From Psychrobacter cibarius (GTDB lineage: Bacteria > Pseudomonadota > Gammaproteobacteria > Pseudomonadales > Moraxellaceae): DNA of 64,000 nucleotides. Both the position numbers and the translations under genes were made by a program. The number at the start of each line of letters is the position of its first letter. Within the stretch, counting starts at the first letter, position 1. Below the pieces are notes generated by a model that was not told the DNA's origin, did not search any database, and saw only the letters and a list, made by a program, of their open reading frames with translations. Location of the stretch: the NCBI RefSeq assembly GCF_016107535.1, contig NZ_JABASQ010000001.1:124001-188000 (forward strand). Reading direction: 5' to 3'. Of this stretch, positions 7,378 through 31,449 are shown piece by piece.

Positions 7378-7401
7378 GATGTGTCATCGTTTAGGTTATT
7401 A

Positions 7402-7667
7402 GGGTCTGTTGAACATTCGACCACGGCACTGACAGTGACTATTTTTTAGTCGATTTTAGATTAAAAATATCTAGTTTAGTCGTTCTAAGCGGATGTTTTT
7501 AATGACGAAGCGGCAAAAAAGAGTCCTGTCTCTTTGAGCTGATGTTAAAATCGCTTCATACTGTGTTGCAAGTCTAGCTAAGGCACGAGCATTATCTTCA
7601 ATTTGCGCCTTGTCTGAAACGATTTGATCAATCAGCAGTGCCTATTTGTGAATGTTCAACAGACCCT
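7402..7667. mobile_element. IS relic or MITE with perfect terminal inverted repeats
   Basis: Positions 7399-7418 and 7650-7669 are perfect 20-base inverted repeats with the core gggtctgttgaacattc. If the element is taken as GGG...CCC it is 266 bp flanked by TA on both sides. On the minus strand an open stretch at 7471-7641 encodes 56 residues ending in CRFVIKNIRLERLN. It begins right after an in-frame stop and looks like the tail of a lost transposase or a passenger fragment. No intact transposase remains. The element sits directly upstream of the eptA promoter region. Confidence 0.75.
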
Positions 7668-7700
7668 AATATGTCCTAATATCTTATTGAATTCAACCAC

Positions 7701-7717
7701 CTTAACATCTTCTTAAC
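7701..7717 (+). promoter_or_regulatory. PmrA-box-like operator before eptA
   Basis: CTTAAC at 7701-7706 and CTTAAC at 7712-7717 form a direct hexamer repeat with a 5-base spacer. This is the geometry of the PmrA box (YTTAAK-N5-YTTAAK), although the last base here is C. A plausible -10 (TACTGT, 7729-7734) lies about 11 bases after the second half-site, which fits activation from the -35 region. The regulator encoded two genes downstream is of the OmpR/PmrA type. Confidence 0.7.
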
Positions 7718-7775
7718 AGCGTACTTGTTACTGTAAGGCATTACACTCCTTACCATCCTGTTGAGAAGTACTTGT

Positions 7776-9488
7776 ATGTCAATATCTCAAGCCGCCAAAA
7801 TCAATGCGCCCAATGCTAATAAAAAAAGCCGCTCCCTAAGCAAGCTCTATAATCGCGAGATTAATCTCAATCATCTGATCATAGTCGTTGCTCTGTATTT
7901 AGTAGCGTCGGCGAATATTGGCTTTTTTGAGCAAGTACTCAGCGTTTATCCATTTAGCACAAACGCGGGCTTTATTTTTTCCATCATAGGCTTATTATTT
8001 GGGCTGATATGGTTGGTGTTGTCACTGCTGTGTTATCGCTCAACAGCAAAAGTAGTGCTTATCATAATGGTGCTGATTGCAGCTATCTGTGGTTACTTTA
8101 CCGACGCCTACGGGACGATATTTAATCGTGATATGCTCATTAACGGCTTACAAACCGATCAAGCAGAAGCTATGGGATTAATGGCACCCAGTCTATTTAT
8201 TCGCCTGTTTTTATTAGGTATAGTGCCTGCTTTTATGATTGGTAACATTCGTCTAAAGCGATTGTCTTGGCAACAAGCAACCCTTCAAAAATCAGTCACC
8301 CTATTATTACCTATCGTATTGGTAGCGGTGTGTCTAGTGCCATTTGGTGACCAATACGCCAGCTTTTTTCGCCAGCACAAAATAGTCCGTAGTTATGTCA
8401 ATCCTATTACCCCTGTTTATTCTGTTATCAAACTGGGTACTGATTATATCGCTGAGCGCCGTCGTCCCGATACGCTAATCCCCCATGCCACAGATGCAAA
8501 ACGCAGCATTTCTTTTAACACTAGCAACAGCGCTGTAAAACCTAAGTTGATGGTATTTGTAGTAGGAGAAACCGTCCGCGCTGACCATATTGGCTTAAAC
8601 GGTTATGAGCGCAACACCACGCCTTTGCTTTCAAAACAATCAGACATTTACAGCTTTAAAGACGCCTCGTCATGCGGCACATCCACCGCCTATTCAGTAC
8701 CTTGCATGTTTAGCTACGCCAATAGAGAAAATTATGACCCTGATAGCGCTAGCTATAATGAAAACGTGCTCGATACACTACACAAGCAAGGCGTCAAGGT
8801 CGTTTGGCGAGACAATAACTCTAGCGCCAAAGGGGTGGCTGACCGCGTAACTTTTGAGGATTATAAAACAGCCGCGCTCAATCCAGATTGTGATATTGAG
8901 TGTCGAGACATAGGCATGCTTGATGGTTTTGATAAACTGGTTAAGTCAGGCAGCTCACAGAAAGAGACACCTAAAGACACACTTATTTTGCTGCATCAAA
9001 TGGGCAATCATGGACCCGCTTATTTTAAGCGTTACCCTAAAGATTTTGCAGAATATCAGCCCGTCTGTATGACCAATGAGCTATCAAAATGCGACAACCA
9101 ATCGGTTATCAATGGTTATGACAATGCCATTCGTTATACAGATTATTTTTTAAATAGCGTGATCGACATCTTAAAACCTTATGAGCAAGATTATGAGGTG
9201 GTGATGGTATATATTAGTGATCATGGAGAAAGTTTGGGCGAAAACAATATTTACTTGCATGGTCTGCCATACGCTATTGCGCCAAATGCTCAAAAGCACG
9301 TGCCAGTGATTATTTGGTCACCGAATGGCAACGGCATTGATAGCAGCACTATTGCTAAGACTAGCCTAGCTAACATGATTGATCAGCCCGTATCACATGA
9401 TTTTATTACGCCAACCTTGCTTCAGTTTTTTGGTATCACCACTGACGAAACCAAAGCAGCACCCACCTTTTTTAAAGTGGCTAATTGA
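7776..9488 (+). CDS. eptA: MCR/ICR-like lipid A phosphoethanolamine transferase
   Basis: This inner-membrane enzyme moves phosphoethanolamine from phosphatidylethanolamine to lipid A, lowering negative charge and polymyxin binding. The first 200 or so residues carry five membrane helices. The periplasmic sulfatase-fold domain has VVGETVRADHIGLNGYER with Glu265 as a metal ligand, then SCGTSTAYSVPCMFSY with Thr304 as the predicted nucleophile, LLHQMGNHGPAYFKRY, and ISDHGESLGENNIYLHG with the Asp-His ligand pair. These match MCR-1-type motifs closely, including YFTDAYGT, LQTDQAEA and YASFFRQHK in the membrane-proximal part. The ATG at 7776 is preferred over TTG at 7761. It heads a locus with its own two-component system. 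Confidence 0.93.
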   Translation: MSISQAAKINAPNANKKSRSLSKLYNREINLNHLIIVVALYLVASANIGFFEQVLSVYPFSTNAGFIFSIIGLLFGLIWLVLSLLCYRSTAKVVLIIMVLIAAICGYFTDAYGTIFNRDMLINGLQTDQAEAMGLMAPSLFIRLFLLGIVPAFMIGNIRLKRLSWQQATLQKSVTLLLPIVLVAVCLVPFGDQYASFFRQHKIVRSYVNPITPVYSVIKLGTDYIAERRRPDTLIPHATDAKRSISFNTSNSAVKPKLMVFVVGETVRADHIGLNGYERNTTPLLSKQSDIYSFKDASSCGTSTAYSVPCMFSYANRENYDPDSASYNENVLDTLHKQGVKVVWRDNNSSAKGVADRVTFEDYKTAALNPDCDIECRDIGMLDGFDKLVKSGSSQKETPKDTLILLHQMGNHGPAYFKRYPKDFAEYQPVCMTNELSKCDNQSVINGYDNAIRYTDYFLNSVIDILKPYEQDYEVVMVYISDHGESLGENNIYLHGLPYAIAPNAQKHVPVIIWSPNGNGIDSSTIAKTSLANMIDQPVSHDFITPTLLQFFGITTDETKAAPTFFKVAN

Positions 9489-9528
9489 ATTCTTTATCAT
9501 CGCTCCGCCTTTTTAGGTAATAATACTC

Positions 9529-10215
9529 ATGTACAAGATACTCATCATTGAAGACAATCCCGATATCGTCGCCAATATTTATGCTTTTTTTGAGCCGAAA
9601 GGCTTTGAGCTAGACAATGCCCATAATGGCATTAGTGGCTTAACGCTCGCATCAAATAATCGATATGACGTCATTTTGTTAGATGTCATGCTGCCGGGTA
9701 TGGACGGCACTAAACTGTGCAAAAAGCTCAGGGAAGAGCGGCATGACAAAACGCCAGTATTGATGCTGACCGCTCGCGATACGATTTTAGATAAAGTGGC
9801 AGGATTCGATAGTGGCGCTGACGATTATCTGGTTAAGCCTTTCTCATTGGTGGAATTAGAATCTCGTATTAAGGCTCTCATACGCCGACATAAAGATGAT
9901 CATTTTGAGCATAGTTTAACTGTTGGCACGTTGTCTTTAAACCATAGTGAGCATACGATTACACGTGAAGGCAAGTCGCTAAAACTCACACCAACAGGCT
10001 TCAAAATACTACATACCTTGATGAGTGCGGCGCCGCGCGTGGTTAGCAAAACCGAGCTGGAAGAAAAGGTATGGGGCGAAGACATACCAAGCAGTGATGC
10101 ACTGCGCACTCACATGCATGGGGTCCGTGCGCAGGTAGATAAGCCGTTCGATAAAATCATGATAGTCACGTTGCCCGGTGTCGGTTACCAGATTATCGAT
10201 CCAGATAAAGCCTAA
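9529..10215 (+). CDS. PmrA-like OmpR-family response regulator
   Basis: The N-terminal receiver domain has the acidic pocket (IIEDNPD) and phospho-acceptor Asp52 in VILLDVMLPGMDG, with a conserved Thr in MLTARD and Lys in DYLVKPF. The C-terminal winged-helix domain spans roughly residues 125-225 (LTPTGFKILHTLM, RTHMHGVRAQVDK, GVGYQI). It lies 40 bases after eptA and before a histidine kinase, so it very likely answers to that kinase and binds the CTTAA(C/T) repeats found before eptA and dgkA. Calling it PmrA is inference from context. Confidence 0.92.
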   Translation: MYKILIIEDNPDIVANIYAFFEPKGFELDNAHNGISGLTLASNNRYDVILLDVMLPGMDGTKLCKKLREERHDKTPVLMLTARDTILDKVAGFDSGADDYLVKPFSLVELESRIKALIRRHKDDHFEHSLTVGTLSLNHSEHTITREGKSLKLTPTGFKILHTLMSAAPRVVSKTELEEKVWGEDIPSSDALRTHMHGVRAQVDKPFDKIMIVTLPGVGYQIIDPDKA

Positions 10216-10287
10216 AAAACCATCGTCTGATGTCCTTATTTGACTCTCAACGTCTTTCATATCGTCTTTCACAACGAAGTAAATACC

Positions 10288-11634
10288 ATGTTTAATATCG
10301 ACTCCATCGCCAATAAGTTTCGACTCTCCTACTTGTTATTTGCCCTATTACTGTGTGCCACTTTCGTCAGTATTTTCATGTATGCCGAAGTCAGAATGGA
10401 GCAACAGCTGGTCAAAGCTCGCTTATTGCAACAGTTAGAGCTTAGCCAAGAAAAAGAAGGCGATCAGCCTATTTATAGCGCTGAACCGGGTATTAAAATT
10501 TATCGCTTCGATAACGCACCGAGCAATCTGCAAAAACTGACCACCCAAACCGTACAAGAAATGCCCGTCACTGTCACCACTAAAAATGGTCAATCGACAA
10601 CAGAGTTACATTTTTTTAACTATAAAAAAGACAAAGAAAACTACATTTTAACCTACTTAGAAAATACTGAAATGGTGATGGGGAATTACCCTGTTTTAGC
10701 CATATTTGAGCATTTAGAAGACATATTTGCCAACGCCCTAAAAATAGCGGTCATTTTGAGCTTATTGATTGCAGCGATATTTTCATCGCTGTCCTCCAAG
10801 CAAATCATTAAACCTTTATTAGACTTAAAGCAAGCCGTAGAAACAGATCATCGCAACTTGACGGAATTGACGCATCTGCCCTCCGAGGTTGGCGTGTTAG
10901 CACGCGCAATCGATGAAAAAAACCACAAACTTGAGCAGTACCTCAAACGCGAGCAGCTATTTACTGGTGATGTCAGTCACGAGCTGCGCACGCCTTTGAC
11001 GATTATCATGGGGGCATCAGAGGTATTGTCCTCACAACTAGAAAACGACCCTCACTTGAGCGCATTTGCCACTCGTATCAGTACGACCGCCAAAGAAACC
11101 TCGGAGATTATCAGCGCCTTATTATTGCTGTCTCGTGCTCCTGAAAAACTGGATGCACCGCCAACGTCTATCAATGACATCGCGTTAAATGAAGTACAGC
11201 GCTTAAATTACTTGCTTCGCCATAAGTCAGTCACTTGTAAAATAGTCGCAGAACAGCTGTATGTCGCACACGTACGACCTGAACTGCTAAAAATGGCACT
11301 GGGTAATTTGATAAAAAATGCGTTTCAGTACACCGATGAGGGTGAGGTCATCATCACTATCGATGCTGAAAAAATCACCGTCACTGATACTGGTCTAGGT
11401 ATTCCTGAGGTGATGATGCAGCTGCTATATGAGAGATTTGAACGTCTAGAGCAGCAGTATAAAGACATCTCATTGGATACAGAATCGTCATTGGCAGCTG
11501 ACGCCCATTATCCAGTAGAAGGCACAGGCTTGGGGCTCAGTATTGTACAGCGCATCATGACACATATGGGCTGGCAGCTTACCCATCAAGTCAATCCGTT
11601 AGGTGGCAGTACTTTTATCATCAATTATCATTAG
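10288..11634 (+). CDS. PmrB-like sensor histidine kinase
   Basis: Membrane helices at about residues 12-34 and 148-168 bracket a periplasmic sensor region of roughly 115 residues. A HAMP-like linker follows, then the dimerisation box DVSHELRTPLT with His231, the N box LGNLIKNAFQYT, the G1 box VTDTGLGIP and the G2 box GTGLGLSIVQRI. The ATG at 10288 is preferred: the TTG 48 bases upstream would add residues that do not fit a signal-anchor start. It probably phosphorylates the regulator encoded just before it. The signal sensed cannot be read from sequence. Confidence 0.9.
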   Translation: MFNIDSIANKFRLSYLLFALLLCATFVSIFMYAEVRMEQQLVKARLLQQLELSQEKEGDQPIYSAEPGIKIYRFDNAPSNLQKLTTQTVQEMPVTVTTKNGQSTTELHFFNYKKDKENYILTYLENTEMVMGNYPVLAIFEHLEDIFANALKIAVILSLLIAAIFSSLSSKQIIKPLLDLKQAVETDHRNLTELTHLPSEVGVLARAIDEKNHKLEQYLKREQLFTGDVSHELRTPLTIIMGASEVLSSQLENDPHLSAFATRISTTAKETSEIISALLLLSRAPEKLDAPPTSINDIALNEVQRLNYLLRHKSVTCKIVAEQLYVAHVRPELLKMALGNLIKNAFQYTDEGEVIITIDAEKITVTDTGLGIPEVMMQLLYERFERLEQQYKDISLDTESSLAADAHYPVEGTGLGLSIVQRIMTHMGWQLTHQVNPLGGSTFIINYH

Positions 11635-11657
11635 AGCAGATCTCTATTTAAAAAAAG

Positions 11658-11674
11658 CTTAACGTTTTCTTAAT
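11658..11674 (+). promoter_or_regulatory. PmrA-box-like operator before dgkA
   Basis: CTTAAC (11658-11663), five bases, then CTTAAT (11669-11674) reproduce the repeat seen before eptA. TATACT at 11686-11691 is a good -10, placed 11 bases after the second half-site, as expected for an activator site occupying the -35 position. The match in both sequence and spacing to the eptA site argues that the same regulator controls both units. Confidence 0.72.
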
Positions 11675-11739
11675 GCCTGCCCGCTTATACTTAATATCTG
11701 CTGATTTATTTTGTCCATTTATTTTTTCCACGATTACAT

Positions 11740-11827
11740 AGTTAAATAGTTAAATAGTTAAATAGTTAAATGATTGAATGATTGAATGATTGAATGATTG
11801 AATGATTGAATGATTGAATGATTAAAA
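11740..11827. repeat. Octanucleotide tandem repeat array in the dgkA leader
   Basis: Four perfect copies of AGTTAAAT (11740-11771) run directly into six perfect copies of GATTGAAT (11772-11819) and one decayed copy (11820-11827). That makes eleven 8-bp units of two related sequences. The array lies between the predicted promoter (-10 at 11686) and the dgkA ATG at 11871, so it would be in the transcribed leader. Perfect short tandem repeats such as these are prone to slipped-strand copy-number change. Confidence 0.9.
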
Positions 11828-11870
11828 TTTATCGCATACCTTGATATTAATAGACTGTGAAGCATTTGAC

Positions 11871-12344
11871 ATGAATAAAGCAAATCCTATTAATCTTGAA
11901 AACCAGTCGACGAGTGGTGGGGGTTTAAGCCCAATAACAGGCAAAAAACAACTGCTACCTCATAGCTATGCCAGTGATGCCAAGGGTAAAACAGGATTTT
12001 ACCGTATTATAAAAGCCGCTGGTTACTCTCTGGACGGCTTCAAAGCAGCTTACAAATTTGAGGCGGCTTTTCGACAAGTATTTTGGCTCAATCTCATATT
12101 ATTGATGGCTATTATATTGTGCCCTTTCACTATCAGCGTCAAAATGCTTCTGGTCGTCGCTTCTTTTGTATCATTAATCGTCGAACTCATTAACACTGGA
12201 ATCGAAGCCAGTGTCGATCACACATCGACCGTCAAGCATCCACTCGCAAAGATAGCCAAAGATGTTGGCTCTGCGGCGCAATTTCTGGCATTAATACTGC
12301 TATTTATCTTGTGGATGATGGCATTATTGAGTGTTGTATTTTGA
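11871..12344 (+). CDS. dgkA: Diacylglycerol kinase DgkA
   Basis: DgkA is a small trimeric inner-membrane kinase that converts diacylglycerol to phosphatidic acid. The core matches the family well: GFYRIIKAAGYSLDGFKAAY, EAAFRQVFWLN, VELINTGIEASVDH with the catalytic and metal-binding Glu residues, and AKDVGSAAQFLAL, with three membrane helices. At 157 residues it is longer than the usual 120 because of a polar N-terminal extension of about 45 residues (MNKANPINLEN onward). The ATG at 11871 is chosen over a TTG 30 bases upstream. Its role here is probably recycling the diacylglycerol that EptA releases. Confidence 0.92.
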   Translation: MNKANPINLENQSTSGGGLSPITGKKQLLPHSYASDAKGKTGFYRIIKAAGYSLDGFKAAYKFEAAFRQVFWLNLILLMAIILCPFTISVKMLLVVASFVSLIVELINTGIEASVDHTSTVKHPLAKIAKDVGSAAQFLALILLFILWMMALLSVVF

Positions 12345-13132
12345 AAACATATTCAGCCAATGGAGTCTGGCTTAAACTCCTATGCTTGACCATCATAGCG
12401 ACACTGTTGTTTGAGCACAGCCAATTAGACATTCATATTAGTGAGCTTTTTTACACTAATGGACACTGGCTACTAGAAAAAGGCACACAACCTTTTGCCT
12501 TTATTTTTTATGACTTGCCTAAATTGCTACTCATCTTACTTGGCATTTATCTCATAGCCGTTCTAATTCTGAGACATAAACAGGATTCAGATATCAATCT
12601 GGTAATAAAAAATGCTAAGTACGATAAACTGCTCACGCCTTTATCCACGCGTGAAATAAGTTATCTACTGCTTGTTTTAATTGCCGTTCCCAGTATGATT
12701 GCGCTACTCAAAGGTGTGACTCATGTCAGTTGCCCCAATCATTTAATACTATTTGGTGGCGACTTGCCTTATCTAAATATTTGGCAAAACATAGTCGCTA
12801 ACACGCCTGCTAAGTGCTTCCCAGCGGCTCATGCCAGTGCAGGATTTTCTCTGTATGGCTTGGCCTTTTTACCCACTCTGCATCAGTATCGCTATAGAAT
12901 ATTTGAAATAGTCACGGTCATAGGATGGACGATGGGACTGTATAAGATGCTATTTGGTGATCACTTTTTTAGTCATACATTAGTATCGATGCTACTGTCA
13001 TTGACCATAACCTGCGCACTTGCAACGCTATTTTTTAAATACCCAGCAGCGAATAAAGCCAACAGTATCAATGCTAATGGCAAAAAATCTGATACGGCAA
13101 GCTTTCAAAAATCGTCGAAAACCCAATCTTAA
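12341..13132 (+). CDS. PAP2-family membrane phosphatase
   Basis: The three PAP2 motifs are recognisable in order: KGVTHVSCPNHL (motif 1 region), FPAAHASAGFSLYG (motif 2, with the catalytic His) and LFGDHFFSHTLVS (motif 3, with the nucleophile His). At least five membrane helices are predicted. The TTG at 12341 overlaps the dgkA stop as TTGA, which suggests translational coupling; a GTG at 12311 is the alternative start. PAP2 genes of this type accompany mcr-1-like genes in Moraxellaceae. Likely substrates are lipid phosphates such as phosphatidic acid, undecaprenyl pyrophosphate or lipid A 1-phosphate; the true one is unknown. Confidence 0.85.
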   Translation: MKTYSANGVWLKLLCLTIIATLLFEHSQLDIHISELFYTNGHWLLEKGTQPFAFIFYDLPKLLLILLGIYLIAVLILRHKQDSDINLVIKNAKYDKLLTPLSTREISYLLLVLIAVPSMIALLKGVTHVSCPNHLILFGGDLPYLNIWQNIVANTPAKCFPAAHASAGFSLYGLAFLPTLHQYRYRIFEIVTVIGWTMGLYKMLFGDHFFSHTLVSMLLSLTITCALATLFFKYPAANKANSINANGKKSDTASFQKSSKTQS

Positions 13133-31184: not shown

Positions 31185-31275
31185 TGGAGGAGACGGAGAG
31201 ATTCGAACTCTCGAAGGGCTACAAACCCTTGTCGGTTTTCAAGACCGGTGCATTCAACCACTCTGCCACGTCTCC
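31185..31275 (-). tRNA. tRNA-Ser (TGA), copy 1
   Basis: On the minus strand the sequence starts ggagacgtggcagagtgg and has the anticodon loop cttgaaa with TGA. It has the long variable arm typical of serine tRNAs and ends cgtctcc-t-cca with encoded CCA. The length of 91 nt fits a class II tRNA. The tRNA sequence is identical to the second copy 174 bases away. Confidence 0.96.
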
Positions 31276-31286
31276 ATTTGTGCATT

Positions 31287-31314
31287 ATTATAACGATATA
31301 AAATAAAAATGCAA
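31287..31314 (-). promoter_or_regulatory. Promoter of tRNA-Ser copy 1
   Basis: Read on the minus strand: TTGCAT (31314-31309), a 16-base spacer and TATAAT (31292-31287), placed 12 bases before the tRNA. Confidence 0.75.
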
Positions 31315-31315
31315 C

Positions 31316-31352
31316 AAAAAAAGCCGCAATCATTAATAATGATTGCGGCTTT
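31316..31352 (-). terminator. Terminator after tRNA-Ser copy 2
   Basis: The stem agccgcaatcat / atgattgcggct is a perfect 12 bp with a 5-nt loop and is followed by a T-run on the minus strand. It separates the two tRNA-Ser genes, so each is its own unit. Confidence 0.9.
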
Positions 31353-31358
31353 CGAATT

Positions 31359-31449
31359 TGGAGGAGACGGAGAGATTCGAACTCTCGAAGGGCTACAAAC
31401 CCTTGTCGGTTTTCAAGACCGGTGCATTCAACCACTCTGCCACGTCTCC
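31359..31449 (-). tRNA. tRNA-Ser (TGA), copy 2
   Basis: Same 91-nt sequence as copy 1, with the TGA anticodon, long variable arm and encoded CCA. The flanking promoter sequences differ at a few positions from copy 1, showing an older tandem duplication with drift outside the tRNA. Confidence 0.96.

What the first reader, a model, noticed from the sequence alone, without database searches (positions are those of the whole stretch)
7701..13132. MCR/ICR-like transferase locus with two matching PmrA-box repeats
Seen: an MCR-like phosphoethanolamine transferase, an OmpR-type regulator and a kinase are followed by dgkA and a PAP2 gene. CTTAAC-N5-CTTAAC stands before eptA and CTTAAC-N5-CTTAAT before dgkA, each about 11 bases upstream of a possible -10. 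Known: PmrA boxes have this repeat and spacing, and chromosomal Moraxellaceae genes are considered the source of mcr genes. Inference: both units form one regulon that combines lipid A modification with recycling of the diacylglycerol released by EptA.
Basis: partly seen in the sequence, partly recalled or inferred. Interest (0 to 1): 0.72.

Follow-up and report, generated by a model that had tools for sequence, protein, structure and literature searches.

The report
Self-regulated lipid A modification gene cluster
A Psychrobacter-type bacterium carries a polymyxin-resistance-type enzyme gene with its own sensor and regulator, and the same DNA switch also sits before genes for a membrane-lipid recycling kinase and a probable lipid A phosphatase, an arrangement that also appears on a clinical resistance plasmid.

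Summary
The boxes before eptA and dgkA are two of only three such sites in the 3.24-Mb genome, each 11 nt before a -10. Across the genus (Psychrobacter, inferred) a box precedes 42 of 43 fetched eptA loci and 34 of 35 clustered dgkA loci, but 0 of 12 dgkA genes without eptA or PAP2 beside them. A refined motif occurs in 75 of 80 eptA+ genomes and 0 of 25 eptA- genomes. One regulon is well supported; binding was not tested. 'PmrA' is wrong: the regulator lacks PmrA's DNA-contact residues and falls in the ColR branch (48.6% identical to Pseudomonas ColR, 37% to BasR). Its kinase has ColS's ExxE motif before TM2. Published ColR targets in Pseudomonas include PAP2, dgkA and zinc-induced eptA. EptA is sister to MCR-1/2, not Acinetobacter PmrC; PAP2 shares a family with mcr-1's hPAP2. 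The clustered dgkA is a separate lineage from a housekeeping copy and is the only dgkA found here. Two leads go further: Klebsiella mcr-8 sits with a ColR-branch regulator and dgkA, with one identical 22-bp site before mcr-8 and before dgkA; and the whole cluster lies on a plasmid-like Psychrobacter contig.

The parts
7397..7671 (+). MITE-like element with 22-bp perfect terminal inverted repeats, ending 29 bp before the eptA box
   Evidence: also at the same place in three close relatives
7701..7717 (+). regulator box before eptA, CTTAACATCTTCTTAAC
7729..7734 (+). -10 of the eptA promoter (TACTGT), 11 nt after the box
   Evidence: inferred promoter
7776..9488 (+). eptA, lipid A phosphoethanolamine transferase, sister group of MCR-1/MCR-2
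9529..10215 (+). ColR-type response regulator
10288..11634 (+). ColS-type sensor kinase; ExxE (EHLE) at 10708-10719 just before TM2
11658..11674 (+). regulator box before dgkA, CTTAACGTTTTCTTAAT
11686..11691 (+). -10 of the dgkA promoter (TATACT), 11 nt after the box
   Evidence: inferred promoter
11734..11823 (+). two adjoining arrays of 8-bp tandem repeats in the dgkA leader
11871..12344 (+). dgkA, diacylglycerol kinase; only dgkA found in this genome
12341..13132 (+). PAP2-family probable lipid A phosphatase, same NCBIfam family (NF028538) as the mcr-1-linked hPAP2; start inferred

Best explanation
A self-contained lipid A remodelling regulon. The sensor kinase (ColS-type, ExxE before TM2) probably senses excess metal such as Fe3+ or Zn2+ and phosphorylates the ColR-type regulator. 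The regulator binds the direct repeat TTAAC-N6-TTAAY at two promoters, overlapping the -35 region, and turns on (1) eptA together with its own regulator and kinase genes and (2) dgkA-PAP2. EptA moves phosphoethanolamine from phosphatidylethanolamine to lipid A and leaves diacylglycerol; DgkA turns that into phosphatidic acid for re-use; PAP2 acts on lipid A phosphates. Shown here: sequence, conservation, co-occurrence, spacing, homology. Inferred: binding, signal, direction of regulation, enzyme reactions.
For: Box rarity in the genome. Box before 42 of 43 eptA loci and 34 of 35 clustered dgkA loci, 0 of 12 dgkA loci without eptA or PAP2 beside them (Fisher p 2.5e-10 for the dgkA contrast, not corrected for relatedness). 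Refined motif CTTAACRYYTTCTTAAY in 75 of 80 eptA+ and 0 of 25 eptA- genomes; reversed control 1 match in all 105. The one fetched eptA without a box (G196) has no regulator or kinase beside it. Box to -10 spacing of 11 nt in 31 of 34 dgkA and 27 of 42 eptA promoters, about 5% expected after shuffling. Regulator found in 20 of 20 eptA+ and 0 of 6 eptA- genus genomes of the family sample, E<=1e-45. Regulator 48.6% identical to ColR taken next to a footprinted ColR site; trees put it with ColR, away from PmrA/QseB. ExxE before TM2 in 30 of 30 genus kinases aligned, in register with ColS. Published: ColR activates PAP2 PP0900 and dgkA PP1636 (PMC2689224 passages); ColS senses Fe3+/Zn2+ through ExxE (PMC4074579 passages); ColRS drives zinc-induced eptA in P. 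aeruginosa (PMC9952513 passages). MdoG absent from 105 of 105 genus genomes, E. coli control found. eptA and dgkA together in 75 of 105 genomes, eptA alone 5, dgkA alone 2, neither 23.
Against: No binding or expression data. The box consensus alone fits PmrA as well as ColR, and the boxes score lower on the ColR matrix (eptA 12.5, dgkA 11.6) than the seven ColR sites themselves (17.6-23.7). In the larger tree the regulator is sister to, not inside, the group of ColR proper (81/78 and 93/86 forks). The first tree warned of long branches. The kinase is only about 30% identical to ColS. The PAP2 of Pseudomonas colRS loci is below the NF028538 cut-off (89 against 275 bits). Two genomes hold dgkA without eptA and five eptA without dgkA. 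Five of 80 eptA+ genomes lack the refined motif, and five of the 42 eptA boxes lack the leading C. Lipid A of P. cryohalolentis showed only bis-phosphate forms in significant amounts (PMC4113819 passages; whether that strain has the cluster was not checked).
Confidence: 0.8

Rival explanations
1. One reading: a PmrAB system and PmrA boxes.
For: The box fits HTTAAD-N5-HTTAAD with 2 (eptA) and 1 (dgkA) mismatches (consensus from PMC12654582 passages). Acinetobacter-type loci of the family have eptA-regulator-kinase with TTTAAG-N5-TTTAAG-like boxes before eptA and PAP2.
Against: At the six base-contacting positions of Klebsiella PmrA (PMC4660055 passages) the window has S D T H G P, E. coli BasR T N V H N R, the nine Acinetobacter-type regulators S N V H H/N R. 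NCBIfam PmrA 170 bits against a cut-off of 330. Trees separate the groups.
Confidence: 0.1
2. The boxes are read by a second, QseB/PmrA-like regulator found near the locus in some relatives.
For: That regulator (L132_14, L149_6) has the PmrA/QseB contact residues.
Against: It is absent from the window's genome at E<=1e-60 and present in only 42 of 105 genus genomes, including four eptA- genomes that lack the motif (G070, G157, G179, G181).
Confidence: 0.03
3. DgkA and PAP2 are co-regulated with EptA but serve another task, such as undecaprenyl phosphate recycling.
For: Published work on mcr-1-hpap2 and mcr-3-dgkA discusses undecaprenyl pyrophosphate phosphatases (PMC7559476 abstract and passages). 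In some relatives boxes precede DedA-type (VTT domain), YceI and PepSY genes.
Against: PAP2 is over the cut-off of the lipid A phosphatase family; Vibrio eptA needs dgkA for its effect (PMC12064563 passages).
Confidence: 0.2
4. Chance repeats without regulation.
For: One unrelated exact site exists in the genome.
Against: Conservation, spacing and co-occurrence.
Confidence: 0.01

Closest known systems
ColRS regulon of Pseudomonas (and RaxRH of Xanthomonas)
   Same: Regulator branch, kinase ExxE motif before TM2, target set of PAP2, dgkA and a phosphoethanolamine transferase
   Different: Here the targets and the two-component genes lie in one locus, eptA shares the regulator's own operon, the box has TTAAC half-sites rather than TTSAC, and the transferase is of MCR-1/2 type
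pmrCAB / eptA-basRS
   Same: eptA-regulator-kinase gene order and 11-bp-period direct repeat
   Different: Regulator is of the ColR branch with other DNA-contact residues; dgkA has its own box
mcr-1-hpap2 cassette
   Same: Transferase clade and PAP2 family (NF028538)
   Different: The cassette fetched (L208) has no regulator, kinase or dgkA, and no such repeat within 250 bp before mcr-1
mcr-8 module of Klebsiella plasmids (mcr-8, regulator, kinase, dgkA)
   Same: Regulator branch, dgkA, one identical 22-bp site before mcr-8 and before dgkA, 11 nt to a -10-like hexamer
   Different: Transferase belongs to another EptA clade; regulator gene is divergent from mcr-8; kinase has no ExxE in its first 130 residues; no PAP2 annotated in the stretch
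Vibrio dgkA-eptA operon under RstAB/CarRS
   Same: A two-component system controls eptA and dgkA together, shown by experiment
   Different: One dgkA-eptA operon and RstA-type regulator

Membership tests
ColRS | Regulator in the ColR branch | tested here: met
   48.6% identity to ColR, 100/96 and 100/99 clades; but sister subgroup to ColR proper, forks below the star level
ColRS | ExxE in the periplasmic domain just before TM2 | tested here: met
   30 of 30 genus kinases, aligned with ColS
ColRS | Targets include PAP2, dgkA and eptA | tested here: met
   By boxes and gene order only
ColRS | Box YYNASNNYTTTTTSAC | tested here: inconclusive
   2 and 3 mismatches; scores higher on the ColR than on the Acinetobacter-type matrix in 76 of 76 sites, but below true ColR sites
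ColRS | Activation by Zn2+/Fe3+ | not testable with these tools
   needs an experiment
PmrAB | PmrA base-contact residues T/S N V H N/H R | tested here: not met
   S D T H G P
PmrAB | NCBIfam PmrA equivalog cut-off | tested here: not met
   170 bits against 330
MCR-1/2-type EptA | Same clade as MCR-1 and MCR-2 | tested here: met
   100/100 clade, as sister group
MCR-1/2/6 proper | NCBIfam MCR-1, -2, -6 cut-offs | tested here: not met
   531-554 bits against 1100-1235
PAP2 lipid A phosphatase NF028538 | Equivalog cut-off 275 bits | tested here: met
   361.9 bits; activity not tested
Prokaryotic DAG kinase | Pfam PF01219 cut-off | tested here: met
   88.1 against 22.3 bits

The most novel reading that the evidence does not exclude
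Phosphoethanolamine transferase genes of two distant EptA clades (the MCR-1/2 sister clade here, and mcr-8) travel as self-regulated modules: transferase, ColR-branch two-component system and a dedicated dgkA, with one and the same regulator box before transferase and dgkA. The Psychrobacter module sits on a plasmid-like contig with metal-resistance genes, and near-identical copies occur in six species' genomes. If so, the plasmid-borne mcr-8 unit would be inducible, and the mcr-1-hpap2 cassette would be the regulator-less remnant of such a set.
Probability: 0.45. Interest if true: 0.75.

Novelty: new variant of a known kind. Interest (0 to 1): 0.55.

Why it matters
The roles of hpap2 beside mcr-1 and of the two-component genes beside mcr-8 are stated as open in the papers seen (PMC7559476 abstract; PMC6887894 passages). 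A natural locus in which one ColR-type regulator appears to control an MCR-1-like transferase, a diacylglycerol kinase and a PAP2 phosphatase gives a testable answer: they are one lipid A remodelling and lipid-recycling programme, probably induced by metals. It also says which regulator to test for mcr-8.

Tried and rejected
PmrA as regulator: rejected. Second QseB-like regulator as box reader: rejected. More regulon members in this genome: a scan allowing 2 mismatches gave 83 matches against 44 for the reversed control; only the two boxes had 0 mismatches and the four 1-mismatch sites lie inside genes or at 3' or odd positions; the 77 two-mismatch sites were not examined one by one. Box consensus or matrix as a way to tell ColR from PmrA: inconclusive. 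E. coli dgkA upstream: no such repeat. mcr-1, -2, -3, -5 upstream 250 bp: no repeat by the pattern used; mcr-9 one TTAAG-type match. The MITE has no match in the plasmid collection. PAP2 in viral contigs: none. Circularity of the plasmid-like contig G130:C10 by exact end overlap: not shown, although both its ends lie between kinase and dgkA of one cluster. No structure predictions were run.

Searches for prior description: 'Psychrobacter'+'mcr-1'+'PAP2' (1 paper), 'Psychrobacter'+'PmrA' (9 papers), 'ColR'+'Psychrobacter' (2 papers), 'mcr-8'+'dgkA'+'two-component'+'histidine kinase' (51 papers with at least 3 terms, 20 listed). I saw no description of this regulon in those listings; passages of two mcr-8 papers name the neighbours copR and baeS and do not contain 'ColR'. 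Only open-licence papers are held.
Full report
Observation. The two repeats and their genes are as described. Genome-wide the pattern CTTAAY-N5-CTTAAY has three matches, two of them these; the third faces the 3' end of an unrelated gene. Both boxes lie 11 nt before a -10 hexamer.

Conservation. I fetched dgkA, eptA and neighbouring regions from relatives. With the pattern TTAAC-N6-TTAAY within 320 bp upstream, a box precedes 42 of 43 fetched eptA loci of the genus (41 genomes; five of the 42 lack the leading C) and 34 of 35 dgkA loci that have eptA or PAP2 beside them; it precedes 0 of 12 other dgkA loci, one of which (L181) does have a regulator and kinase of this type nearby. The loci were chosen for gene hits and in part for extra box hits, so these are not random samples. 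The unbiased count is: the refined motif CTTAACRYYTTCTTAAY occurs in 75 of 80 genomes with eptA and 0 of 25 without; the reversed control gives one match in 105 genomes. The five eptA+ genomes without it are G088, G128, G171, G195 and G196; the first four have a looser box. The spacing of box to -10 is 11 nt in 31 of 34 dgkA and 27 of 42 eptA promoters, against about 5% in shuffles. Genomes are related, so the Fisher values overstate the evidence.

The regulator. It meets no NCBIfam equivalog cut-off. At the six positions by which Klebsiella PmrA touches bases (PMC4660055 passages) it has S D T H G P, where BasR has T N V H N R and the Acinetobacter-type regulators S N V H H/N R. Using a published, footprinted P. 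putida ColR site I fetched the colR-PAP2 locus of P. putida-group genomes; ColR there is 48.6% identical to the window's regulator, against 37% for BasR and 32-39% for Acinetobacter-type PmrA. Trees put it with ColR and apart from PmrA/QseB (100/96, with long-branch warnings; 100/99). In the larger tree the Psychrobacter regulators and the mcr-8 regulator form one subgroup (93/86, under the star level) beside ColR, Xanthomonas and other family members (81/78). In two other genera of the family a ColR-branch regulator and kinase lie next to eptA (L226, L227) or PAP2 (L228). The kinases of the genus share ExxE just before TM2, in register with ColS, 30 of 30.

The box. It is intermediate. It scores higher on a matrix of seven ColR sites than on one of 26 Acinetobacter-type sites in 76 of 76 cases, but below the ColR sites themselves, and mismatches to the published consensus do not separate the two. 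The identity of the regulator therefore rests on the protein. A QseB/PmrA-like regulator found near the locus in some relatives is absent from this genome (E<=1e-60) and present in four eptA- genomes without the motif.

The enzymes. EptA is sister to MCR-1, MCR-2 and their chromosomal relatives (100/100) and separate from Acinetobacter PmrC, E. coli EptA and MCR-3, -5, -8, -9. PAP2 passes the lipid A phosphatase model NF028538, as does the mcr-1-linked hPAP2; the PAP2 of a Pseudomonas colRS locus does not. dgkA is found in 75 of 80 eptA+ and 2 of 25 eptA- genomes. Clustered dgkA forms a lineage (92/85, not starred) apart from a stand-alone one that has similar neighbours in another genus of the family; the window's genome has one dgkA match only. 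MdoG is missing in 105 of 105 genomes, so the best-known other source of diacylglycerol is absent. In some relatives the same box also precedes genes for a VTT-domain (DedA-type) protein, cytochrome b561 and PepSY, a DUF347 protein and YceI.

Relatives of the mcr genes. In genus g7 of the family the MCR-like eptA is followed by PAP2 and preceded by TTAAG-N6-TTAAG (4 of 4 loci); two g10 loci with near-identical relatives of MCR-1 and MCR-2 have no such repeat; none of six reference regulators matched these six loci. On Klebsiella plasmid NZ_CP141679 mcr-8.2 lies with a regulator (50% identical to the window's), a kinase and dgkA. One 22-bp word, GATCTTAACAAGATCCTGACAT, stands before mcr-8.2 and before dgkA on that plasmid, and before mcr-8.1 on a second plasmid; shuffled intergenic pairs share at most 13 bp (300 shuffles). 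In both promoters GATAMT follows after 11 nt (read). The mcr-8 kinase has no ExxE in its first 130 residues, so its signal may differ. Papers whose passages I saw call these neighbours copR and baeS and leave their role open.

Mobility. A second, near-identical cluster recurs in six genomes of the genus: G062, G130, G133, G142, G145, G161 (stretches of 98.7-100% identity). In G130 it lies on a 49-kb contig with Rep3, MobA/MobL, KfrA-type and ParA-type genes and metal-transport genes; its backbone matches 37 named plasmid records, 22 of them Psychrobacter. No plasmid record holds an eptA at 60% identity or more to the window's.

Function. The mechanism given is inference built on published systems: ColR activates PAP2 and dgkA (PMC2689224), ColS senses Fe3+ and Zn2+ (PMC4074579), ColRS drives zinc-induced eptA but without colistin resistance (PMC9952513), and dgkA is needed with Vibrio eptA for resistance in E. 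coli (PMC12064563). All were seen as passages.

Noticed in passing
window 7397-7671: MITE-like element with 22-bp perfect inverted repeats; six near-full copies in the genome at 69-100% identity, also at this place in three close relatives.
   Followed up: partly
window 11734-11823: Two adjoining arrays of 8-bp tandem repeats (4.8 and 6.9 copies) in the dgkA leader; box-to-start distance is 212 in the window but 117 in three close relatives.
   Followed up: partly
L234-L236 (G130:C10): Plasmid-like 49-kb contig carrying the whole eptA-regulator-kinase-dgkA-PAP2 cluster beside metal-transport genes; near-identical copies in five other genomes.
   Followed up: partly
L246 3597-3618 and 6994-7015; L210 868-889: Identical 22-bp ColR-like site before mcr-8 and before dgkA on Klebsiella plasmids.
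   Followed up: partly
L132, L133, L134, L136, L141: The same box also precedes DedA-type, cytochrome b561/PepSY, DUF347 and YceI genes in relatives.
   Followed up: partly
L152, L153, L154, L156: TTAAG-N6-TTAAG repeat before MCR-like eptA-PAP2 without a matching regulator nearby.
   Followed up: no
L044 and L060 (G066): Two complete, divergent copies of the cluster in one genome.
   Followed up: no
window 31188-31449: Two tRNA genes of equal length and score in tandem on the minus strand.
   Followed up: no
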